From Mesaphorura yosii (taxonomy: Eukaryota; Arthropoda; Collembola; Poduromorpha; Tullbergiidae): a stretch of 64,000 nt of DNA. Shown here piece by piece: positions 16,375 to 62,916 of the stretch (position 1 is the first letter of the stretch; each line of letters opens with the position of its first letter). A program made the position numbers and the translations under genes. Below the pieces are notes generated by a model. That model did no database searches. It was not told the origin of the DNA and was given only the letters and a program-made list of their open reading frames with translations. Where the stretch lies: NCBI GenBank assembly GCA_009869945.1, contig WIXG01000044.1, forward strand, positions 1-64,000, read 5' to 3'.

Positions 16375-19300
16375 ATGACACTCTATTTCGAGAAGAAGCT
16401 CCAGTTTCCACCATCGGCACAGCTGGGCAATCGCATCTACTCCGACATACTCTGGCATCCAATCCATCCACTCCTGGCCATATCAGCGTTTGATGATAAG
16501 AAGGGCGGTCTGATATCTGTATACGATCATGAGGTAAGCTAAGCTCATTCTTGGTGCCAACACCTTTCTATAACGATTCCGTATCTTTCATGCAGAAAGA
16601 GGAAACAATCGACATCGACGCTACACCAAAGCGTGACATTCAAGTCCTGAGCACCTCCTGGCATCCCGTGCAGCGATACTTGGCGATTGGGTACGAAACA
16701 GGTGAAGTCATGGTTTGGAACCACGACGAGAATGAAACATTCGAAGGGTCGAAGTCACATCACAGCGCCGTGACCATTGTCCGATGGAGCGCAGACGGAT
16801 CCACTCTGCTCTCGACGGACACGATGGGCTCGCTTGTGCTTTGGACGTGCAATAGGCAAGGTCACATTCAAGACAGGCTGCACCAAGACTTTAATGACCC
16901 TGTAACGCAACTCGTTGCGCTGCCACTTAAGGACAACACTAGCGAAATGTAAGTTGACTGCCAATAAGTCAATTCAGTATTCCTATTCTAAATCCTCAGC
17001 TTGCTAAAAGTTACGTTCGTGCGTTCCCTGCTTCCAGAAAGGAAAGTGTCGAAAATTTGGAACGTTCGCTGGGCAAGATGACTTCTTGGCGGCCAAAGAC
17101 GGCTGCTAAGCGAGTGGGCACCGCAGCCACGATGTCCAGCCGTCGCCAAAGTCGCAGTCAACAACTTCAGTCTCGAAGGCGTGGCTCACGCATGCCGATT
17201 GACTCATTCGAAGATGACGACCAAGACAACAGTCAAGCCGAGTATATGGACGACCGCGTTAACGAGGTGGCCTTTGATGATGCTGAAGACGAGGATGAAG
17301 TCGGTCGTGATCGTGATCGCGGGCGTCGAGCGAGTCAAAGGTCACAGCAGCACTTGCCATCGTCCAACACAAGTACAAAGGCAGGCAAGGAGTCCGGCGA
17401 TGCAAAGAGTTGTTTTTACGCTGGGCTCATGAGCGGAGCGATATTTTACCTGAAGGACAACGGCTCCAGTGAAGAAGTGCTCACAGCTGGCTCTTCGATC
17501 AAGCATCTTCTCCTAAAGGAGTCCCTCGATGTGCTGATTGTGATGACGGAAGCCTTCATAATGGGACAGTTTAAGATTGACTCTATGGGCGCACTTCATG
17601 AAATGAACAAGGCAAGTGCGAAGCATGATGGTTTAGAAAAATTGTATGTTAATTAAACTAGACATTGTACTTCGGCAGGTTAAACTGAGTGGAATGGGCG
17701 ACATTCGAATTTCATGGGTTGGGCCCAACACGATTGCTGTGCTGAGCAAAGAGCTTTCAATCCGGCTTTGGGATCTAGAATCGAATGAAAACAGCGTACT
17801 AGAAGCTGATCAGGGCCTTTCGTACACGCCAGATGAAATATTCTCGTCAGTCGATTACCAGAACAATACCGGTACTGACTTACTAATACTAATCACCCTA
17901 AGCTATCACTGATCAAACCTCAAGTGATACCGTGGTCTATTTTGCAGGTGTTCTGGCCTGCTGCACGAATAAGGGTAAGCTTATCATGTGGAAAGAGAAT
18001 CCAACGCTGGGCTTGGCCAAGCAAAACAGTTACAATTACGAAGACGAGATTATCAGTGATGAAAGTAACAATTGGTTCTGGTACAACTCCACAATCACAT
18101 CGTCAACTTCGCAAACGAAGGAAATTCAGTGGTCTCAATCGGTCGCCGGTACAGTTGCCGTGAATGGAGTGCGGGACATTTATGTTCTGACCGAGCACGA
18201 ACTTGTCGCAGTGCACAATGATAAGGTACGTCGTTTAAATTCATAATGAAAAGAACACAGAGCATTTGATTGCTAAACTGTTTTATGATCTTAAAATAAA
18301 ATAGATCAGCGTAGTCCAAACGCAGCAGAACCAGGCCACCGTGTCAATCTTGACGTATCAACCTCGACCAGTGCGACAGAGCCTGGCCGAACGACTCAAA
18401 CCACAGAATCCTGATGATGCAGCGACGATGTTGGAGTACAAAATGTTTCTTGCGGAAATGAACTCCGATGAAGAAAAACCACCGAACAGAACGCCAGTCA
18501 ATTTTGTTACGTTCAACATCACGACTGAAATACAAATCAAGAATTTCGTGGTCAGCCCGAATTTTCTCTGCATTTGGAGCGGCCAGGATGTCGAAGTCTA
18601 CGAGATTTCGACGGATCCTAATGACCACTACAGAATTATTGGCAAGTTGACGTTGCATTTTATACGAAAATCTTGAGCAGAATCGTTGCTTGAACCTGAC
18701 TTGCCTATTTCCATTAAATCAGGGACATTCAAGGACAAGTGCGTCTCTCTCTGCCTTTTCGAGCAATCGCTTTACATCCTGGAAACTGAGCACGTGCAAA
18801 TTCGGACGTTTCAAGGAACTCTGAAGCAAACGCTAACATTTCTCAGTGCGGAAGGTTCGCCCATTTCCCTCACTCATGCAGGCGAGTACATCACCGTAGC
18901 CACGATGCTGGGCTACATTAAACTCTGGCACATCGGTCAACGTGAAGCGAAAGTGCATGCAACGTCCCCAAACTTGACGGACAAGCTGGAGGACTTTGGC
19001 GAGGTGATTTTGGTGAGGAATAGCCACGATGGGAGTAAAGTCGCGTTCACCGTTGCACAGGTATGAGGAATGCACCACACGTCATGAATTAACTTCTCTT
19101 AAGTGTCGTTATTTTCTTTCTTTTTCCAGAAAACTTTAATGACACCAGACTCCCGTTTCTTCGTGTGGGACTTGCAAAACGAGACGATCACGATGATTGC
19201 CTTCCCCGGCCAGTTTATTACCCAACTTTATTGGGACTTGGAGAGCAACACGTTTCTCGCACTGGAACTGAAGGCGATGTCGGAGGAAATCTTGGCGCAA

Positions 19301-22300
19301 AGCAATTCGGCGGTTTACAGCGAGAACTCAAAGTTGGTGTACGGAAGCAATGAATTCGACAAGACTTCGCAAATCGATGGCGAAGAAGGTGATGGCGATG
19401 TCGATGTCGATCGAGGTACGGCGGAGGTCACGAGCGTGCGCGGGCGTGCGCGTGAAATGGGCCAGGGCGATACGCCAACGGCCACACGGGAAACGTCAGC
19501 GGCTGGCATGTTTGAAGTTGAAGACTCACCCCCAAAACCAGAGAACCAATTTGCGACAGTATTTCATACGAAGGAACGCGGAATCGTTGTCCATTCGAAA
19601 ACGAAGCGTGACGTCGAAACGCTGCTGATGGGACTCGAAGTTCCACATTTGGTTCTGCTGGAGGGCAAAGGAGGCCTTGCCGAAGATGTCAGCAGTGGAA
19701 GTGGAAAGCCCGGAAAGCGAAAGGTTTTGGTCACAAAATCTGCTTTGCATGAGTCATTTACATTTACACTGGGACACTGGCGTGATTTACTTGATCAATG
19801 ATTTTGTGCGCACAGAAAAGCGGCTCCGCCCGGCGAGCCAATGTCCAACTGCAAGCAGCCAAGATTGTCAAGAAAATCATCCAGGACTTTGACGAGTTGG
19901 ACGACCCCGACCAGAATTCAGTTGCGAAGAACGCGCTGACGCAGTACGTCTACCATTGCGTACTGGGCGAGGATGACAAGGCGCTGAATGTGCTACGACC
20001 AATCACCACGTAAGACACACATCCCGCCACCGCACCGTAGAAATGTCATAAAATGTCAAATGCGAAGGACGTCCTTTGAGTTTGTTGCGTAATGCGTATT
20101 TATGTCTTCTGTCGGGTCCAGGGAATCACTCTGGATTCAAATGGCGAAACGCTGTGTGACCACAAAGCGAATTGACATTGCTCTAAACTGTTTCGCCCAC
20201 ATGAAAGACGCGCGTGGTGCGCTTGCGATCCAGCGGATCCAGAATCAGGAGCCGGGACAGGAAGACGTTCACCTCGCGAGGCTTGCTTTACATCTCAACA
20301 TGAACGTACGGAAATACTGAAAGAACAAACTGTGCTTGAAAGCTGTTATTTTTGCCTAAGCTTCACTTTTAAAACGGCGCGGTGTACACTTTTCTTGTAG
20401 GAAAAAGCCTTCGAGCTCTACCAGAAAGCAGGGCGCTACGATATTCTCGTCAACCTCTACAAATGGGGCTCAATGTGGGACCAGGCCATCGCCATTTGTG
20501 AGAAGCACCTACGAATCCAACTTCGGACAACGTACTACGAGTACGCAAAGTACCTGGAGGAAGAGGAGATGATTGATGAAGCCATCGAAATGTATGAAAA
20601 GTCAGACACGTTCCGAACGGAGGTTCCGAGGCTCCTTGCTGAAAGTAATGTGGAAAAACTGGAAAAATACGTGCTGGAGAAGAAGGACAGGTAAAATCAG
20701 ACGCTTCAGAAGCACGAAAATTTAATATTTGTGATACTTAACAAATGCGTGGAAAACGATATAATTTTCAGGGAGCTTTACAAATGGTGGGCACAATACT
20801 TGGAAAGTGGAAACGATCTCGAGTCTGCGCTTCACTACTACGAAATGGCGGATGATTGGCTCTCGCTCGTCCGCCTCCTCTGCTTCACTGGCCAGATTGA
20901 GAAGGCGGTTGCAATTGCGGAGCGCGTGGATGACAAGGCGTCCGCGTACCATTTGGCGAGGGCATTTGAAGACGTGCAGGACGCACAAAAATCTATTCAC
21001 TTTTACACAAAGGCGCAGGCGTACGGAAGTGGAATTCGTGTGTGCAAAGACTTTCTGCTCGATGACAATCTCTGGAGCCTTGCGCTTCTCGCGGATCCAA
21101 TCGAGCAAGCAGATGCAGCCAAATATTTTGAAACGAAGGACGAGCCTGATTTCGATCGTGCAATCAGGCTGTATCATAAAAGTGGCTATGGGGCCAAGGC
21201 TTTGGATTTGGCATTTGCGTAAGCGAACACTGGACCAGAAGAAACTGCTTCACAAATTACGAATTAAAGTTTTGTTAATGACTTTTCTATTTCTTATAGA
21301 ACTCAAGAGTATGGAGCTCTGCAGTCAATCGTACACGACTTGATACAGAACGAAGATCAGCGAATCGACCCTGAGCTTTTGAAACGTTGTGGCGATTTCT
21401 TCATTGCAAACAAGGAGTATGAACGTGCACTGGATACGTTGGCCGCTGCTAAACGGGTTCGTGACCTATCCTTCTATTGTGACGCACACGTGAAAAGGGC
21501 ACGATGTCAATGTATTTGGTGTATTCGTATTCATTTCAGTACGTTGAAGCAATGGAAATGTGTGTTCAGTATAACCTGCACATCTCTGAGGAAATGGCTG
21601 AGAGATTGACAGCCCCGAAGGGCGGCGAGATCGATGAGGCGACAAGGCTGACAATGTTATTGAAAATGGGCGAATGTTGCATGCACCAGGGTAGCTATCT
21701 GTTGGCTGCTAGGAAGTTCACGGAAGGTGGTGATAAGGCAAGGCTGACGACTGACGAGTTGGACTATAAAATAGAAAACAAAACTTTAACACTTGGCTCT
21801 GTTCTTGTTCTTTCAGATTCAAGCCATCAAGGCCCTTCTCAAGTCTGGCGACACGAATCGGGTAATTTACTACGCGAAAAGGTGCAAAGAACGAGAAATC
21901 TATCTGATAGCCGCGCACTACTTGCAAACTACCGATTTAAAAGCCAACCCGAAAGTTATTGATACGATAGTCCAGTTCTATACAAATGCAAAAACGCCCG
22001 AGTCCATCATCTCATTTTATGAGTCATGCGCGCAAGCAAGTGCGGAGGAGGTTGACTACCCAGCAAGTCTGGAGCACTTGAAGGCAGCTGAGAAAATAAC
22101 GCGAGAACTGTATGAAGCCAACAGCACTGGCGAGCCCACTCTGGACCTTCGTTCTTTACAAGGCCGTCTGCAGGTCATTAAAGAAAAGATTGGCTACGTG
22201 GAAAAGTTTCTGACTGTGCAAAAGTGAGTGCAGAATCTTCCACAGCATATACTGTGCAGATTCCCTGATTGCATGTTTATCTTGTCGCTGCGTTGCAGGA

Positions 22301-24731: not shown

Positions 24732-27427
24732 TTACGGCTGAAGACTGCCATTGGACAGGTTCCTTTTCCATTGTAATAACCTACAGTAAAACAATAGATC
24801 TGGGATTACGATAGAAACAATAGATTACGATTCATCTAGGGCTCCAAGAACTACTTATCTTACGTAACGACATTTCCCCAAAGTTGCCTTTGCTGATTAG
24901 AGCGTGCCAGAATTTGGCCCAATTCAGCTAGTTCGTTTTCCAACTGCATTTGAATCCGTTCTTGCTCCAGTATTTTGATAGTCAGCTTCGCCCTATCATG
25001 CGACAAAGTTAATAAGACTTGCGTCCACGCCCGGTCACGTTCTTAATCCATTGCAAATTACCTGAAGCCATGAAAGGACAAACTCTGGCTGACCTTCTCC
25101 TCCGTCACTCGAAAGCGTGTCACATTCAGTTGTGCCAGCAGACATTTAAGCTGGACAAGCTTGAATTGGTTCGTTTCCCATTCCTTTTTCAGGCGTTCAA
25201 TTTTCTAAGAGCGAGTAAACATCAAAGCCTTTTAATACTTTCGAGACGCGTGGTTTAAGCATTGATCAATCTTTTAGTTTTCTTAAAAGACTTAAAACGG
25301 TGCTGGCCATAGTGTCAATTGTTTCTTTGCTTACAGATTGGAGTTCTCGGTTCCCAGATTCCAGAGATAGGCAAAATGCATCAAAATTCTTTTTATTCTC
25401 ATCCCGATTCATTTGAAGCAGAATTTCTTCCTGTCTGGCTTGCTTTACATCTGAACTCAAATAAGAAGCAATTGATTTGTAACGTAACGAGTTCTTATCT
25501 TAATCCAAAGTGATGTCGATAGTCGATTACTATTTAAAAGCGGTTCCAGACCCTCCTTCTTGGCTTTCACCGTCTGCATCAGTTTCTTAACATTCTTTAT
25601 CATTTCATACAGATACTCCTTCTCGTCAAAATCTGGACTGGAGTACTTTCCAAATCCAAGCACTTTCGCAGAATCCCCGTAAAATCGGCTCAGGCCGAGT
25701 TGTATTTCCAAATCTTCCTGCATACGCCCAGAGAACCGAGGATTTAATTAAACTGGATGAGATTTCCAGATTCCACATCGTCTTGAAGGCATGACTTACG
25801 AGTTCCTTTTCGGTCTCTCTCCACTGCCCATCAACAATAAATCTCGTCGACGATAAAATTCCAGTCTCTTTTTTAAGCATGCTAAATTCCACTTGTAATT
25901 GGGTACAGTATTCATCCTTCTTCTGGACATACTCGTCGTACGTGCAGCAATCTTGCTCCAACTGCGAGGCAATCGAACGTTTCTCGTTCCGTTCGCCTAA
26001 CGTGTACCGAATATGTGACCTCATCGAAGAAAGTCTTTCAATTGCAGGATCCAACTGGTCTCGAAGACCCATCTTCTTGCGCTGAAGGGCATTCGCCTTT
26101 TGTCGCAAGGAAAGAAGCTCTTCGCTTGAATTCTTGATTCGCTTTCGGTTCTGAGCTTCCGCAATTTGGTCGCCGATCTTGCGAACCTTCTCTTTAAGCC
26201 CATTTATGTGCTGATTACTTGCTGGCGGTTTTTCATCGACGAGTTCGAGCGCATGAATCTTTCGCCGCAGAAAAACATACTCGTCTGGGCCCCTTTCGTG
26301 GATTAGTGTCCGGAGTCTATTGTTCTCTTCAATTGCATTGTCCAGCAACTCCTGCCCAGTTTCAACGAGGTTGCTCGTGTTGCATGCTTCCATGTACATA
26401 TTATGAAATTCGATCTTCTGGCTTTCCGTCTCCGCATAAATTCTTTCTTCATTTCTCTCTTCATCGGCCAGCTCCACGGCTTTTAATTCGGCAAGACGCA
26501 CGTCGTGCACGGACTTCAACATGAAAGGAGTTTGTCCGTTCTCATTCATCTGTAAAACAGTTGTTTTAACGCTGACTAAATTTTCGAGGTAATGATTCAA
26601 ATTACCCGGAACATCATCCCATCCAATTTCCGCTGAATGCATTCAATGTCGTGTTCCATAGTCTGCATATCCGTCAAATGGGCGGAAGCGGAGTTGGCGT
26701 TTCCTTGTAATTTCAAGTACTGCTTATGAATAGCCTTGAATTCGTCCAAGAGAGCTTCGTACTGCGAGCAAGAAATAGAGGAAATCACTTCAAAACGCTT
26801 GCCAAGTCACTCATATCATTCGCGCAGGCCGTGATATACTGGCCATACCTTTTGGTAAGTACTTTCAACTTCGCCATCCGCCCACCAATCTTCGTCCGGA
26901 ATTGGAATTCTCACCAGATACTTTGCCAAGTACGCCCGAATCTTCAAGTCTTCCTTTCTGCTCAGAAGCCACCCCATGACTGGTACGAGGAAATCCGGAT
27001 CACCGTTCAAGATCCCATCGCGAATAATGTGCCTGATCGAGAAGCAAACGTAAAATCAGTTGCTGGTCAACCGGAGGAGAATGCGTTAGATAAGGGCGAA
27101 TCAAATAATCACTCACGGATCGCCATGAGGCGATTGATACTTGAGCACGCGGAGGAATTCCAGTACGCGAGTCAACGTGGTCTCCTCATCCTCCCTAGAT
27201 GGGTCGAACTTTCCCTGATCTGGGTCAATCTCCGCCATAATTAATGAGAACAACTGTAAAACAAGAAGATTGCACAGATTAGATTTCTACTTACAGCAAG
27301 AGCAAAAGCGTACTTGAATCATTTCGGCACAGCTCAAATTGCCGAAGGATGCCACGGTGAAGTCCAGATTGAATGGTGCCTGTGCCAGCTCGTTGCAGAG
27401 GAATTTTTCAATACTAGTTTCCGCCAT
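24732..27427 (-). CDS. IFT81: Intraflagellar transport protein 81 homolog (IFT-B complex)
   Basis: IFT-B subunit that, with IFT74, binds tubulin for anterograde transport in cilia. Exons in gene order: 27314-27427, 27117-27253, 26849-27032, 26606-26761, 25800-26549, 25531-25717, 25335-25450, 25062-25204, 24864-24992, 24732-24780; all phases agree, giving 654 residues against 676 in human. Residues 1 to about 130 form the calponin-homology-like tubulin-binding domain, with GDPDFLVPVMGWLLSRKEDL and IRAYLAKYLVRIPIP, the family's most recognisable stretch. The remainder is predicted coiled coil rich in Glu, Lys, Arg and Leu, with SYLSS-free spacing matching human once an 80-nt intron (25451-25530) is removed. 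The 3' end faces the acylphosphatase gene across 266 bp. The start is divergent from TPRKB. Identification is firm. Confidence 0.94.
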
Positions 27428-41357: not shown

Positions 41358-44300
41358 TTACGTACTGCAGTTATAAAATCTTAAATCTTCCATCGAATAC
41401 GAGTAGGATCGTCTCATTTGTTGATTATGAAGCGTACCAGTACCGATACCTGTCCAGGTGCCGCAGGACTCTGCCGGGCGAAAAGAGTACATGCTCGTCG
41501 TCGTTCGTCTGTGAACACCGCCACCGCCTCCACCGTAGCCGTAACCGTAACTGGCGCCGATGCCCGTGCAGCTAACGCCGGTTCCTCTGGAGTAATCATG
41601 GTACAACGACTTTCTTCCGCTTCCGGCAGCACTACGCGAACTCCCGCTCCTGTGAGCATTCGCATACTTTCTGGCAGCGGGTTGCCAGTCGTACAAGAGC
41701 GGGTCATCTGGGTCTCGATCCGCTGTGTCATCACGAAACAAGTCGGCGACGGGCTCCGTCAATCCATCTTCGCACTCCCTGCAAATGCAAATACAAACAC
41801 AGAATAAGAAAGAAGAAAGTTTATTCAATGCGTAATGTAAATCGTATCGAACTCGGATATCAAAATCGGAGAACAGGACGGAAGACGAGACGGAGACGCG
41901 CACTGACCCAAATACGCGAATACGAGTGGGTAGAGTATTTTACTTACAAACTCGTATTTTACATCTACATGCTACTACAAGCTTTGAATTGTTTGCAGTT
42001 TAGGGGAGCAGTCCCTGACTACAAATCGTGAACTCGGGCGGAACTGTCAGAAGTTTAGGACAGGAAATGGCCGCGTGAGCGCTTATCTCCCGGGCCAAGT
42101 TTTGAGTGATGCACGATAAATTATTATTCTCGGTGCATGATCTTGTCACAAGCAAAGTTTGGAGTACAAAAGAGGAAAAGATGAGATCAAGCCTGCCTGA
42201 CTGCCAATCCGCCGTGTTTGGTGAAAGTCGAGTGCTTTGTGCTTGCCATGCCATGCTTTTCTAAGCCTTGTACAACAACAATGTAAATGGCCAACGTAAA
42301 CCGTAATAGTAATCGTAAAGAAGTGATATGAATACGGAAAAGGAATGTGTCCGCCTGCCTCCGTCACGCCATGCCATGCCATGAATAAATGAACACATGA
42401 ACACGCTCGGCGCTCGCTCACGTTTCACGTGCGAGACTCGAGTAAACAAAAGGAATCTGAATCTGATCCTGCTTAGAACAAAAGCAAAGCGGCAGGTTTC
42501 TCATTTCTCATTTCACGATAAACACAAACACAATAAAAGAATTGAGCTACGTGCTGGTGATAAGCTTTCTGCGTGAAAGAATGTGAATACGAATGCGAAA
42601 TCGGCCGGCCGGCCAAGTCGGAAACAGCAGAAGCTCAGCAGAAACACAAAAGCACAATCAGCACACAATGTACAGTGTCTAAACTGTTACACAATGCACA
42701 GTGCGGAAGGGTAGTAAAGATTATTATTGCCAATGCCATTGCGTAACAGCGTAACATGCCGGCTAATGCAGCCAGCGTGTAGTGCTCTTGAGAACGTGAG
42801 TCTTCGTAAATAGTTCCCAAGCCGCCATTTAACAACGGCAACTGCGAGTTATTCGGTAGTATTTTATCTGGTAACCTAATTTAAATTCAAAGAACTCAGC
42901 ACAAGCAAGGTAGCGCAGTGCCCTGCACTGAAACAAAAGCTGGCGCTGCCGGGTCGCCACTTTATTAAGAATTTTCATCACGTTTTACAACTACGACGGC
43001 GGCAGTCTGTGCCGTCGTGTGTCGTACTTGTGAAAAATGTGTTTCGCTTTTCTCCTTTTGTGTCTGGGCCGCAGCCGCACTTGTACTATAGTCTCTTTAG
43101 CCAGTTGGGTCCATTTTGCATGTCGACGAGACGCGCAGAAGATGAGCGAAACGTGCGGAGTACGCAGCCAACCGGAAAGGAAAGCAGATGAGGTCAATTT
43201 ATTATTAAACGTGATTAGGTGCTTGTGTGCATGCTCAATCGCTGTTCGCTAACGACTAAATGCCTTTCCACATGGCAGAGCCTGCAGAACAGGGACTTGA
43301 TTCAATAAGTTGCATTCTACGACTCGCATGCATGCTTGAAATTTCATCGTGGGTTATTTTCTCATTTCCTAAATTCTTATAAATTAGATTAGCATGACAG
43401 AGACGAACGATACAGTGCACAGCACAGGTTGAGCTGGCTTATGAGTTAAATGGCACACAATCTGGCCACGTCTCCGTGTGCAAGCTGCTAAATGCTGAAT
43501 GCTAAATACCAAATCTACAAATCCTCTTGTTCTTCTTGTCTTCCAGCGCTTGTTCTGCTATGCTGTCTCTTCACAGTCAGAAGAGGAAAATCAATATTTT
43601 GTGAGAAAACTTGTGAGATTAACAACGCGTATTCACATTAGTCGCCCACGTATTCGTTATTCGTTACATTGTGTTGCATGCTGGAATGGGTCTCACGTAT
43701 TCATTTCGCATTTCTCCATTCGCACTCGCCATTTGCATGTTTCATGTTTCAGTTCTTAATCTGCCCGGAGAACATTGTTAAGATGGGGAAGGAAACATCT
43801 GCTGCATGTGCGTGGCTGAGTCTAGTGCTGCTCATTTTAAATGGTTTAATTATTGCGGCACGGCAGCAGGCAGAGCCTTTGTCTTTGTCTTCCTGTAGAG
43901 AATTCGAACGAATTCAGGTCAGAATTCGTATTCGTACTCGTACGTTTCGTACGTGCGTCTTTCACGAATCGCGAGACGATTCTCGTAACTCGTAATTCGT
44001 AATTCCCGTTACTGATTGAGAAGCGTATTGAAATTTTCTCCTTTCTCTCAGCTTAAGTCTGAAAGCCTTTTAGACTTCCCACTCTACTTCATTAGGCCCA
44101 CTGAACAACTTAATTTAAAGCCCGGAAATTTAATTCCGATTGAGATATTTCAATTTTTAATGAATTTCAAGCGCAACCGGAATTAATTCTGACTTTTGAG
44201 ATCAAAATTCCATTACGAACGTATGCATGTACGGTCCTGCTGTTAATATTGACGGAAATTTACTTACAGGTGCTGAAACTGCTTCTCTTTAGAGCCCGTG

Positions 44301-47300
44301 CCCGTCGCCAGCGAGAACCATTTGACGCTCGTCCAAATAATAAGCACAAACGCAAAGTTCAGACAGCATGTGATTGCAATCACGATAAGAACGTCGTCCG
44401 TTTTGTAGCAAATCGTGTCGATGCCTTCCTTTATGATGGACTTCTTTGTCGCCGTCGTCGTAGGCGTCGCGTGACTGTGGCTGAGGCCAAAGCCGCCGCC
44501 GCCAGCAGAGCTGCCGTTGCCATTTCCATTGCCTTTCTGCTGCAAATTCGGGTTTGTATCGACGGAAGTATTCACAATTCGGTTATTGGGCGAAGCCAAA
44601 AATATATTGTCGTCCACTTCTTCGCCGTCCTCATCGCGATTCTCGTCACTGTCGTTAATATTATTCAGGTCATCCACAGAAAACGAGTTTGGGACACTAA
44701 CTTTCACTATTTTCACTGTATCACTTTTCGCCCTCGCCCTCGTGTGGCCGTGTGAGTTTGTATTTGTGTTTGTGTTACTGTGACTGGGCCCGTGTCCATA
44801 ATGATCTCCACCATCCGTGTAGTAATTCCTGGAGTGTTTGCGTTCGCCAGGGACGACTGCACGAAATATAAATGATGATGGGGATGATGGATCTTTCCCG
44901 TCTTCGTTAGCAGTACGAGTGCCGGTGTTGGACGACGGCTCCTCATCGGACCAATTCATTATAGATTTCCCGGTCGCGGCTTCATCGATCTCTGCTGCTG
45001 CTCGCCCTTCGCCTGCTTCTTCTTCTTCATCATTATCACCTTCATCTTCATCTTCATCATCATTATCAATCTCGTCCTCATCAGCGTAAGATTTCCAGTC
45101 AATTGTATTTTTGTTTCTGAAACTGGTCAGTTTCTCTCTGAAGTTTATAAACACGTCGTCGCCGTCGCTGTCTTCTGCGTCGATCCTCCGCGTGGCTGCT
45201 GTTGTGGTCGTGCTCATCGTTGGCGCGGACACGGCCACAGCTGGGAAAGGAACTGAGATCGGATGCTGATGCTGCTGAGGCGGTGGCGGAGGCTGTCGAG
45301 CCTCGACAATCTTCGCGTTTGGGCCGAGCATCATTCGCAGCACGACATCGCCTTCAAGGCCTCCATCATTCTCAAGCTTCTTCATGGCGTGTCTAATTTT
45401 ATGGAAATCTGAAGTGACAGACGTCATGCCTGGGCCCGGGCCTGAGCCTGAGCCGCCTGGCAATTTACCCGGGGAACCAATTACACCGGCATAATTTCTG
45501 CCATTGTTATTGCCATTTCCATTACTGTTCCTAACATTATGGTTATTACTCGTGGGCTCGTAGTACTGCTGCTCATTGCCGCCTGTATTCGCAGCACCGT
45601 CACCACCATCATTAAAAGTAGAACTCAACACAAAGTTTTCATTCTTAACATTATTATTATTGCCATCCATTACATTACCAGCACTAAAGGTACTTGGGAT
45701 CGCTCTTCGTTCACTTTCTCGCCTATCACCGCCGTTCACACTTCCTGTATTCGCTCCGGCTGCAGCACGCTTCATTCGATGACTTTCAAAAGTTGGGCTT
45801 TCTTCTGCATGTGCGTGTGAGTTCGCGTGTGACGAGGAAGAAATTGCATTCACATTCGTACCAGCACCAGAAGAAGATTTATGTGCTCTCGTTACAGTTC
45901 CCGTCGCTGGCACTGCAACTTGATGTTCATCATCTTCAAATTTTCCCAAATGTACTAAATTGATATTAGAATTCACACTTGTAAAAAGTTTTATAATTTG
46001 ACTTCCAAAATAAGTTAAAAAGTTTGTTCGTTCTGCGGTCTTCGTGGCCGCGGCCGAGGTTGGTTTCTTGTTCTTCACATTGTTCGCGTGGCTCGGTATT
46101 CTGGCCGTGTACGCTGCGGCCTTGCTTTCTTCTAATGGCCCGACTCCGTCTGCATTTTCACTTGGAACTTGGACTCGAGCCGAAGCTTGTCTCTGATAAT
46201 TAAGTTGCGGATCCTCTGAAAGTGGTTCGCTGCTGCTTTTGCTGCTGTCAGGTTCGTAATTTGTGCTGAGCGGGCTACCTGCAATAAATTAGAAGAAACA
46301 GAAACATGAGGCTGATTGCTAAACAGATAAGAGTAAAGATAATTCAAAGAGATTGGGCAAACTTCGCGTACGCTACGCATTATCGACGCCGCCATCGGGC
46401 CATCGTCCGTCCGAGTCGAGTACAAAAATTAGAATCGAATTTTCACGAAGCCTCGCAACGCCAATGAAATTGTTGACCAAAATTCATAAGATCAGTTTTC
46501 AAACTTCAAGTTTCGTGTTGTACATTCCTGATTATGGTTGGATGGGCATAGGCAAACACGTACTTACGAAATGATAACGATAAGTTTCCTTATTGATGTT
46601 ACATCCTGTAATTATCACACCACAACGCTAACTCAGTCCACCACTGCCCGCATGTATGTTTCTGGCGGCCTGCCTGCCAAGTTCTTAATTTCCCGTACGC
46701 GTACCACAGCAAACCGTATGAGAAGAAAGAAAGAGAAAGCAAAAAATCCGCTATTCACTATCCACAAAACCGCATGCTCCTAATGCACTCTCCCGCGGGC
46801 CGAAGGCATCATTTGCTTTATGGGAATCGCGAATCGCCGTGTTATTTATAGAGCCTTCTTCCTGCAGTAGCTTTCTTTCCGTTTGCTGTAATACTCAATC
46901 TCTTAATGCACTCTTGCGTTCATATTATTATTGATCATCATTAGTCGCGGGCCCGCAAGCAATGCCAGCTTGTCTGTCTGCCTGCCGACCGCAAGTGCTT
47001 CTGCGGCCGTGAGCGAAAGAAAGTATTGAGGAAGAAAGAAATTATTGCTAATGGATGAGCAACATTAAGGAAAGAGTCTCATGGCGAGCCAGGAGCCAGA
47101 CGAAATCCAAGACGAAGACCGGGTCCTAAGATTTGTATGGATACAAAATCTTTCTGTGGTATCAGAATAAGTGCTATTACCGAGCTTATTTATCCGGTGA
47201 AAGCAACAATAGCAAGACTAATACCCACACCCGCAGTATATTTCGGGCCAGATTCTTGTTAGTAGTTCTTGTAACGCTAACGCGACGGTTCCTTCCGAGG

Positions 47301-61209: not shown

Positions 61210-62916
61210 TCACGGACCATGAAACCACTGCTTTTTGCTGTTTTCCTGGTTGCCCATCTCATCCCGCGATCCTCGAAGGCTCCAGTCACCCGACTGTCGG
61301 TGCCAGGATCCGAATTTTGCCAGATTGCTCATCGTAGCCGTGGCCGTGGTCGGGGTGTTGATGTGTGGTTGTCTACTCGTGCTGCTTAATCGTTCCGCGT
61401 ATTCCTGCTGTCCAGCAGAAATTCGTCGGTACATGAAATCTGTGCTGCGATCTTCACGGACGTGAACCAGGGAGACGTTTGAATCCTTTCGTGCTGCTGG
61501 AATTAAGAAGCTGCCGGATCCAAGACAGTCGTCATTCATGAAGAAACTCAGGCCGTACTGTCGGTGCTCCTGCTCTTGCTCGTTCGCTGTGGGGCTGTAA
61601 TGCTGCTGCAGCAGCAACTGTTTGACTTGCTCGGAGGACGTGCTTTTGCTGAGCGGGCGGCTGTAGTGCACAATTTCATCATCGTCATCTTCTGGCGTCA
61701 GGGGCTGCAGGGTCTGGTTCTTATCGTTATCACGGGTTGAGCCTACCGCCGCCGGCTTGGATCTCGAATTTTTCCTCTTGAACGGCACGTTTTCGATCAA
61801 CTCATCTGACGAGTAGCGTCTTTCAAGCTCTGTGAATTTCTTTCGCCCGTGCCCGCGTCTCCTCCGCTTTCGCTCATCTTCGTCATCATCCTTCGAAGTA
61901 CAGTATTTGTGCACCAACCACAGGCAGCAGACGTAGGGGCACGTCACGAATACGATTGTGTTGTACGCCAGAAGCTGCCAGGGGCTGAATCTCTCTACCG
62001 TCGGCTTTCTCGTGATTGGATTCACCGGCAATCCATCCACGTACACCACCGTCAGATTTGAGTACTGCTTCTCGTAGTATTTGACCAGTTTTCGCGGTTG
62101 ATTGTAAAAGTATCCCAGGCCCACTTTGGCAATCGAATTTTGTTCACAGCATTCGCAGCCGCAGCACGAGTAGCATCGACAGCACAGTCCAATTAGTCCT
62201 TTGCAGAACCCGAGCAGGAACAGGAAGAGCAGAAAGATGATGACGACCATGACGGGATGAGCCGCGGCTGATTGGATAAGTGTGCCAGCTCCGTACTCTG
62301 AATTCAACTTGTCCAGCATCCTGCCGTCGATACCAGCAGCTGCTGAATCTTGGCTGCTAAGCCGGTGGCAGCGAAGCGAGTCTTTGGCGCATGTGCACTC
62401 GCAATTCAGGTAGCAAATGCACGTGTCACTCGGAGAGAGCAGAATTTGGCGCATTGCGATGATTTCACGGTCGGAATTGAGGACGACCATGGAGCACCAA
62501 GTTCTTTCTACCAGTTTCGCCCGACCACGACTTCCAATCTGCACTCTGAACCTAAAGCCTTGAACCCTCTGCGCGTGGATCGTCTTGGGTTTTGAGTTGA
62601 GGTGACCTCCGGCGTTGGCCGAGGCCACGAATGGCGGGCAGTCGAATATTTGCACTCGAAACGGGCCGGATGTGAAGCCCGTATTCGCCACCTCCACGAC
62701 AAGCTTGCCGTGCGTGGAGCTCGAGTCCGCGATGACTGATAGTATCATTGCTCGCCAATGGCTTTCCTGAAATTTCTTTTCGATTGATCATTCAGTTAAT
62801 TAATTATATGCATGTCGTAATTCATAAAGAGTACTGTTGCTTACGTCTTCAGCGGAAATCGTGCAGAAGAAGCTTGTCAGAGTTACGAGCTGCAGGACAC
62901 AAAGTCTCGGGAACAT
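61210..62916 (-). CDS. HAP2/GCS1-like membrane protein containing only the C-terminal part of the fusogen
   Basis: Two exons, 62845-62916 and 61210-62766, with a 78-nt intron in phase 0, encode 542 residues. Exon 1 encodes a signal-peptide-like leader (MFPRLCVLQLVTLTSFFC). Residues 40-130 resemble HAP2 domain III: HGKLVVEVANTGF, a paired Cys at 67 and 115, and SKPKTI. Then comes a Cys-rich stem with CICYLNCECTC and an AAAGI stretch, as I recall for animal HAP2 stems. A membrane segment spans about 196-218, followed at once by a dense Cys cluster suited to palmitoylation. A second hydrophobic stretch lies near 289-309. The charged tail of over 200 residues has Arg and Asp/Glu runs. HAP2 domains I and II, including the fusion loop, are absent here. 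Either this is a derived short protein, or exon 1 is wrong and more exons lie off the right edge. Family assignment moderate. Confidence 0.6.

What the first reader, a model, noticed from the sequence alone, without database searches (positions are those of the whole stretch)
61210..62916. Short HAP2/GCS1-like protein with its own signal peptide but no fusion-loop domains
The sequence shows a leader exon joined in phase 0, by a typical 78-nt intron, to an exon that appears to enter HAP2 domain III partway through. It continues through the Cys-rich stem, membrane segment and long tail. HAP2 is a class II gamete fusogen whose fusion loop lies in domain II; domains I and II are missing here. If real, this is a secreted-pathway membrane protein derived from a fusogen that could not fuse membranes by the known mechanism. 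It might act as a partner, decoy or regulator at gametes.
Basis: partly seen in the sequence, partly recalled or inferred. Interest (0 to 1): 0.75.

Follow-up and report, generated by a model that had tools for sequence, protein, structure and literature searches.

The report
Gamete fusogen remnant lacking fusion domains
An arthropod genome carries what looks like an intact gene for the membrane-proximal third of the gamete-fusion protein HAP2, with its own secretion signal but without the part that inserts into the partner membrane, so if it still serves in gametes it must work differently from known HAP2.

Summary
On the minus strand a 24-codon signal-peptide-like leader (62845-62916), a 78-nt GT-AG intron and a 518-codon exon (61210-62766) encode a HAP2-type domain III, Cys-rich stem, membrane segment, Cys cluster and long tail. 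Trimmed domain III matches PF10699 at E 1.3e-5, but under the curated cut-off (24.5 of 27.4 bits), and untrimmed it does not match. The best Foldseek hit in the PDB is P. berghei HAP2 domain 3, E 1.5e-3. The exon holds nearly all of domain III. Domains I-II were not detected between the leader and the next gene at 67264, and PF10699 finds only this locus in the assembly (no eukaryotic positive control). The genome is an arthropod's. Caveats: no transcripts, no relatives, and published notes that Drosophila and Apis HAP2 lack the pfam10699 motif, so signature-less arthropod HAP2s have precedent. Best reading: a real, HAP2-derived, non-fusogenic membrane protein, perhaps a gamete-surface docking or adhesion factor; that function is inferred.

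The parts
62845..62916 (-). leader exon, 24 codons from ATG, signal-peptide-like
   Evidence: translation; chance estimate; hydrophobic core (Kyte-Doolittle 1.93 over 12 residues) with a basic residue before it; no trained signal-peptide program was run
62767..62844 (-). 78-nt GT-AG intron, phase 0
61210..62766 (-). main exon, 518 codons plus TGA stop
   Evidence: coding-window density 0.13-0.16 against 0.008-0.018 in upstream and background stretches (20-codon windows)
62422..62754 (-). HAP2-type domain III (Ig-like; predicted strands from residue 5 of the exon)
   Evidence: PF10699 positions 381-470, E 1.3e-5, 24.5 bits, under the cut-off; Foldseek top hit 7lr3; Cys codons 43 and 91 align with the domain III cysteines of three solved HAP2s
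62368..62424 (-). Cys-rich stem (C-x-C-x3-C-x-C-x-C-x6-C)
   Evidence: direct reading of the translation
62188..62268 (-). transmembrane segment
   Evidence: Kyte-Doolittle 19-residue maximum 2.8
62146..62205 (-). juxtamembrane Cys cluster (9 Cys in 20 residues)
61213..62145 (-). long tail, about 310 residues
   Evidence: no Pfam match over cut-off
61900..61980 (-). second hydrophobic, Cys-containing stretch in the tail, followed by an acidic then strongly basic run
   Evidence: Kyte-Doolittle 19-residue up to 1.6 in the printed windows

Best explanation
This is an intact gene for a short HAP2-derived type I membrane protein: signal peptide, nearly complete domain III, Cys-rich stem, membrane anchor, Cys-rich juxtamembrane segment and long tail. 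Domains I and II, and with them the fusion loops, are gone, so it cannot act as a class II fusogen by the known route. Shown by computation: the open exon structure, the domain III relationship, the membrane segment, and the lack of a detectable domain I-II nearby or elsewhere in the assembly. Inferred: loss by deletion of the exons between the signal-peptide exon and the domain III exon; retention under selection; and function. The mechanism I think most likely is a non-fusogenic surface protein of the germ line, in which the tail and Cys cluster place the protein at a membrane site and domain III, an Ig-like module that can fold alone, serves as a docking or adhesion surface for a partner. 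For that mechanism by itself I give about one chance in three.
For: Trimmed domain III matches PF10699 381-470 at E 1.3e-5 and the domain III to juxtamembrane stretch at 2.2e-5; the own-genome PF10699 search gives this as its only match. Of 1245 Foldseek matches (50 shown) ranks 1, 2 and 4 are P. berghei HAP2 domain 3, rank 10 P. falciparum HAP2 domain 3 and rank 20 Arabidopsis HAP2. The two domain III cysteines align; PMC9259645 calls the strand C-F disulfide invariant (passage). Intact 518-codon exon with coding-type codon use. Signal-peptide-like leader rare by chance. No PF10699 match in 62.77-67.40 kb on either strand or in 70-90 kb on the minus strand; another minus-strand gene lies from 67264 upwards. 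Domain 3 of P. berghei HAP2 was expressed and crystallised as a fragment in complex with Fabs (PMC8806182, passages). Changes in the tail or its Cys or basic residues affect localisation or function of HAP2 in several species (PMC8777248, passages).
Against: The Pfam score is under the curated cut-off, and the untrimmed ORF or exon gives no PF10699 hit. phmmer of the ORF against the PDB finds no HAP2. The structure model is single-sequence and weak (pLDDT 54.6, pTM 0.52) and no Foldseek E-value is below 0.001, with glycoside hydrolases close behind. hhalign against a three-sequence domain III profile is weak (probability 13%, E 0.0021; a tail control gave 0.48). The leader has no coding-type codon use. 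On the tail as a placing device: in Arabidopsis one study found the C-terminal sequence dispensable (PMC3013147, passage), another found its positive charge needed (PMC2841615, abstract). No expression and no relatives, so neither selection nor a gamete role is tested.
Confidence: 0.5

Rival explanations
1. The gene is a full-length HAP2 in life: domains I-II were lost from the assembly (collapsed or misjoined inside the 78-nt intron), or lie in exons too divergent or too small to be seen, or on another contig.
For: Arthropod HAP2-related genes are called divergent (PMC2766252, whole text); Drosophila and Apis HAP2 are said to lack pfam10699 (PMC6089408, figure legend passage), so profile silence is weaker evidence in arthropods. 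The assembly is fragmented (1127 contigs). The genome search with one recalled plant domain I-II peptide was empty but has no positive control, and neither has the PF10699 search in a eukaryote. In the first codon-window run the upstream minus strand scored above its background (0.0049 against 0.0016 and 0.0025), though far below exon 2 (0.10-0.16).
Against: No unknown bases in 60-90 kb. The intron has a typical length and a leader that reads as a first exon. In the later codon-window run the upstream minus strand (0.0079, 20-codon windows) is below all four background stretches (0.0096-0.0178); with 30-codon windows it is 0.0033 against 0.0029-0.0111; the gene itself is at 0.11-0.16. In three other solved HAP2s the domain I-II motif peptide scored higher against the plant sequence than domain III did (28.7, 28.3, 22.7 against 24.4, 27.3, 12.6 bits), so a counterpart as conserved as this domain III should have shown, if arthropods follow that pattern.
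Confidence: 0.2
2. A remnant of a HAP2 gene that lost its working half recently and is now decaying, with no function.
For: Steele and Dana infer repeated losses of HAP2 in arthropods (PMC2766252, whole text). Disrupting the HAP2-GCS1 motif drastically reduced function in Arabidopsis, and its deletion showed it vital in P. berghei (PMC3013147, passages), so such a piece could not do the old job.
Against: 518 codons without a stop, coding-type codon use and high third-position GC (0.64-0.65 against 0.40 overall upstream); an intact signal-peptide-like leader with good splice sites would be a coincidence in a decaying piece.
Confidence: 0.15
3. A membrane-tethered inhibitor: domain III plus stem binds the trimer core of another class II fusogen and blocks fold-back, as exogenous domain III and stem fragments do for viral fusogens.
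For: Exogenous domain III and stem fragments inhibit class II viral fusion (PMC4945073, passages, which cites Liao and Kielian 2005). The retained ectodomain is domain III plus stem.
Against: No full-length HAP2 target was found in the genome (with the limits stated); PMC4945073 found no cross-inhibition of an unrelated fusogen (passage).
Confidence: 0.08
4. Not HAP2: an unrelated Ig-like, Cys-rich membrane protein that resembles domain III by chance.
For: Score below the Pfam cut-off; glycoside-hydrolase domains score close behind in Foldseek; negative phmmer; weak hhalign.
Against: Profile and fold search agree on the same domain of the same family, out of 24736 Pfam models and 350,542 PDB chains, with the order domain III, stem, membrane segment, Cys cluster as in HAP2.
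Confidence: 0.07

Closest known systems
HAP2/GCS1 gamete fusogens (Arabidopsis, Chlamydomonas, Plasmodium, Tetrahymena; also cnidarians, sponges)
   Same: domain III with the two strand C/F cysteines, stem, main membrane anchor, Cys-rich juxtamembrane segment (in many orthologues, PMC8777248), tail of very variable length
   Different: no domain I, no domain II, no fusion loops, no motif segment (profile 269-322)
HAP2-related proteins of arthropods (Tribolium, Pediculus, Apis per PMC2766252; D. melanogaster and Apis per PMC6089408)
   Same: divergent, arthropod; the Drosophila and Apis proteins are reported to lack pfam10699
   Different: Tribolium has the domain II fusion-loop region with a 66-residue insertion (PMC6089408, passage); Pediculus is said to have almost no tail (PMC8777248, passage). 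Whether the Drosophila and Apis proteins are domain III-only could not be checked: Liu 2015 is not held, and CG34027, a Drosophila gene name that I recall for it, is in 0 papers held
HgrB of Dictyostelium
   Same: a reduced HAP2 relative with signal peptide and membrane segment; needed for sexual cell fusion (PMC4910948, abstract and passages)
   Different: keeps the HAP2-GCS1 motif, the part missing here, and works beside a full HAP2 (HgrA)
Exogenous class II domain III and stem inhibitors
   Same: same protein segment
   Different: laboratory fragments of viral proteins (PMC4945073, passages); no natural gene

Membership tests
HAP2/GCS1 (fusogen) | domain III of the HAP2 type | tested here: met
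   supported by profile and fold, though the score is under the Pfam cut-off
HAP2/GCS1 (fusogen) | pfam10699 motif / domain I-II core (profile about 1-370, motif at 269-322) | tested here: not met
   a strongly diverged version elsewhere in the genome is not excluded
HAP2/GCS1 (fusogen) | hydrophobic fusion loops at the tip of domain II | tested here: not met
   domain II absent from the gene model
HAP2/GCS1 (fusogen) | signal peptide and C-terminal membrane anchor with tail | tested here: met
   by hydropathy only
HAP2/GCS1 (fusogen) | expression in gametes and need for gamete fusion | not testable with these tools
   no expression data
HAP2/GCS1 (fusogen) | Pfam curated score cut-off for PF10699 | tested here: not met
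   24.5 bits against 27.4
class II domain III/stem inhibitor | a cognate class II fusogen in the same organism | tested here: inconclusive
   none found by PF10699 or paralogue search; sensitivity for divergent arthropod domain I-II unknown

The most novel reading that the evidence does not exclude
Domain III-only HAP2s are a lasting arthropod form: the HAP2s reported without pfam10699 in Drosophila and Apis and this gene would be the same thing, so the membrane-proximal half of the ancient fusogen has a separate, selected role at gametes after the fusion machine itself was lost.
Probability: 0.3. Interest if true: 0.78.

Novelty: new variant of a known kind. Interest (0 to 1): 0.55.

Why it matters
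How arthropods, and bilaterians in general, fuse sperm and egg without a recognisable HAP2 is open. A HAP2 that keeps only domain III, stem, anchor and tail would separate the fusion activity of the ancient fusogen from whatever else it does at the gamete surface, and would give a direct test of that second role in an animal.

Tried and rejected
Upstream domain I-II exons: not found by three-frame Pfam scans of both strands from 62.77 to 67.40 kb, of the minus strand at 70-90 kb, or by codon-window counts. 67.4-70.0 kb was scanned only in the reading frame of the neighbouring gene. A first codon-window run with a partly different training set put the upstream minus strand (0.0049) above its background (0.0016, 0.0025; that stretch had also supplied the background model) but far below exon 2 (0.10-0.16). 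Start of translation at the internal ATG of exon 2 (no signal peptide): possible, judged less likely given the leader. Paralogues: none beyond a chance-level hit. Relatives in prokaryote and viral collections: none (65 and 22 pattern matches, none confirmed). Genome search with a recalled plant domain I-II peptide: empty, no positive control. PF10699 at E 10 also rings in one of 14 control genomes, Bacillus subtilis, a chance-level match. No tRNA in 60-70 kb, no Rfam match in the window. 18S identification of the species did not complete. Insect or not: 4 PBP_GOBP matches, E 1.8e-5 to 4.4e-4, and no 7tm_6 match (no positive control) lean to a non-insect arthropod; not settled. Whether a domain III-only HAP2 is in print: the listings of my ten paper searches (several capped, for instance 15 of 147, 10 of 1,773, 12 of 294 and 30 of 63 papers shown) held no title or abstract start that says so; subscription papers, Liu 2015 among them, are not held. 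What I saw of papers: PMC2766252 whole text; PMC6089408, PMC8777248, PMC9259645, PMC8806182, PMC4945073, PMC3013147 and PMC6117098 passages; PMC4910948 abstract and passages; PMC2841615 abstract and outline; all others only as search listings.

Full report
What is there. On the minus strand a leader of 24 codons (62845-62916) joins in phase 0, through a 78-nt GTAAGC...TTTCAG intron, to an exon of 518 codons ending in TGA at 61210. The protein has 543 residues: a hydrophobic leader, a region predicted to be mostly beta, a Cys-rich stem, a strong membrane segment (Kyte-Doolittle 2.8 over 19 residues), nine Cys within 20 residues, and a tail of about 310 residues with a second, weaker hydrophobic stretch. 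Five introns of a neighbouring gene have anchor gaps of 68-83 nt (5 of 5 examined), so the intron length is ordinary.

Is the leader real? In the 4.5 kb upstream of the exon, 2 leaders of 15-45 codons end in phase 0 at a GTRAG donor, and only this one has a signal-peptide-like core. In 75 kb of other sequence from the window (37.5 kb, both strands; it may contain real genes) none reaches its hydrophobicity and two reach a laxer limit. That makes a chance placement within 150 nt unlikely, about 0.4% or less. Codon use does not support it, but the piece is short. No trained signal-peptide program was available.

Is it HAP2? Scanned whole, the ORF or exon gives no PF10699 match, and phmmer against the PDB finds no HAP2. 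Trimmed to the ectodomain it matches PF10699 positions 381-470 at E 1.3e-5 with 24.5 bits, under the curated cut-off of 27.4. Searching the whole genome in six frames, PF10699 rings at this place only (22.8 bits, E 8.9e-4), even at E 10. A recalled Arabidopsis domain III, checked against the solved chain 5ow3, maps to 371-477 of the same profile, so the matched part is domain III. An AlphaFold2 model from the single sequence is weak (pLDDT 54.6, pTM 0.52) but nearly all beta, with a first strand at residues 5-13 of the exon. Foldseek against 350,542 PDB chains puts P. berghei HAP2 domain 3 first, second and fourth (E 1.5e-3 to 4.6e-3), P. falciparum HAP2 domain 3 tenth and Arabidopsis HAP2 twentieth of 1245 matches; none is below 0.001, and glycoside hydrolases are interspersed. 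In a four-sequence alignment seven columns are invariant, two of them cysteines; the disulfide between strands C and F of domain III is described as invariant (PMC9259645, passage) and conserved (PMC8806182, passage). A three-sequence hhalign comparison is weak (probability 13%, E 0.0021; tail control 0.48). Taking these together I hold domain III as about 90% likely.

Where does the exon enter? The profile match starts at 381 while the Arabidopsis stretch starts at 371, and the exon has 14 residues before the match, including a predicted strand.

Are domains I and II missing? The contig is 330,776 bases long, so I fetched 60-90 kb (no unknown bases). Two overlapping minus-strand frames, 67264-71034 and 70860-73166, the second with a NACHT domain, make up what I take as one neighbouring gene. 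Between it and the leader, three-frame Pfam scans on both strands give nothing; 70-90 kb on the minus strand gives no HAP2 match. Codon-window density on the upstream minus strand is 34 of 4288 windows of 20 codons (0.8%), against 0.96-1.8% in four background stretches and 13-16% in exon 2; with 30-codon windows it is 0.33% against 0.29-1.1% and 11-16%. An earlier run put it at 0.49% against 0.16-0.25% in one background stretch. Against the plant reference, the domain I-II motif peptide scored higher than domain III in three other solved HAP2s (6dbs, Chlamydomonas by recall, 28.7 and 24.4 bits; 5ow4, 28.3 and 27.3; 7s0k, 22.7 and 12.6), so a counterpart as well kept as this domain III should have been seen. 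The limit of that argument is important: in arthropods pfam10699 is reported absent from Drosophila and Apis HAP2 (PMC6089408, legend passage; PMC8777248, passage on Drosophila), so a full but very divergent domain I-II cannot be excluded elsewhere in the assembly, and reads are needed to exclude an assembly loss inside the intron.

Whose genome? 93.0 Mb in 1127 contigs, with 66 chitin_bind_4 matches (a lower bound) and TTAGG arrays on 5 contigs (21 overlapping pattern matches): an arthropod, by what I know of that cuticle domain and telomere. Four PBP_GOBP matches and no 7tm_6 match (without a positive control) hint at a non-insect. The species was not identified.

How it most likely works. 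HAP2 needs domain II to insert into the partner membrane; disrupting the HAP2-GCS1 motif drastically reduces function in Arabidopsis and its deletion shows it vital in P. berghei (PMC3013147, passages). A protein without domains I-II therefore cannot be a class II fusogen by the known route. What is left is an Ig-like module that can fold alone (P. berghei domain 3 was expressed and crystallised as a fragment with Fabs, PMC8806182, passages), on a stem, anchor and tail of the kind that affects HAP2 localisation or function in several species (PMC8777248, passages; PMC2841615, abstract), although PMC3013147 found the Arabidopsis C-terminal sequence dispensable. I infer a surface docking or adhesion protein of the germ line, at roughly one chance in three. 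The tethered-inhibitor idea has a precedent in viral domain III and stem inhibitors (PMC4945073, passages) but no target found here. How it arose is also inferred: deletion of the exons between a signal-peptide exon and an exon starting at domain III would give just this gene.

Comparison and novelty. It is HAP2-derived, but it fails defining features of the HAP2 fusogen (domain I-II, fusion loops, curated score), so I do not file it as a HAP2 fusogen. Reduced relatives exist: HgrB of Dictyostelium keeps the motif instead and is needed for sexual cell fusion beside a full HAP2 (PMC4910948, abstract and passages). The Drosophila and Apis proteins may turn out to be the same kind as this one; I could not see their sequences. 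New variant of a known kind is the fair label.

Noticed in passing
contig C44:67264-73166, beyond the window (L002:7264-10000 and L003:1-3166, minus strand): Two long overlapping open frames, one with a NACHT domain (E 7.5e-14) and a weak NLRC4_HD2-like match, the other with a sub-threshold LRR and a hydrophobic C-terminus: an NLR-like gene, which by recall is unexpected in an arthropod.
   Followed up: partly
window 61900-61980 (-): A second hydrophobic, Cys-containing stretch in the tail, followed by an acidic and then a strongly basic run; it could be a second membrane-associated segment and would change the topology of the tail.
   Followed up: no
window 16533-22224 (+): Exons of an IFT140-like ciliary gene; the frame at 16533-16949 matches the IFT140 first beta-propeller, E 1.5e-30; the later exons were only read by eye.
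   Followed up: partly
window 44270-46288 (-): A 673-residue open frame, by eye rich in Ser, Asn and Gly, with no Pfam match at E 0.01.
   Followed up: no
window 25629-26642 (-): A 338-residue open frame, coiled-coil by eye, that from recall resembles IFT74; Pfam gives only a sub-threshold ATG16 match.
   Followed up: no
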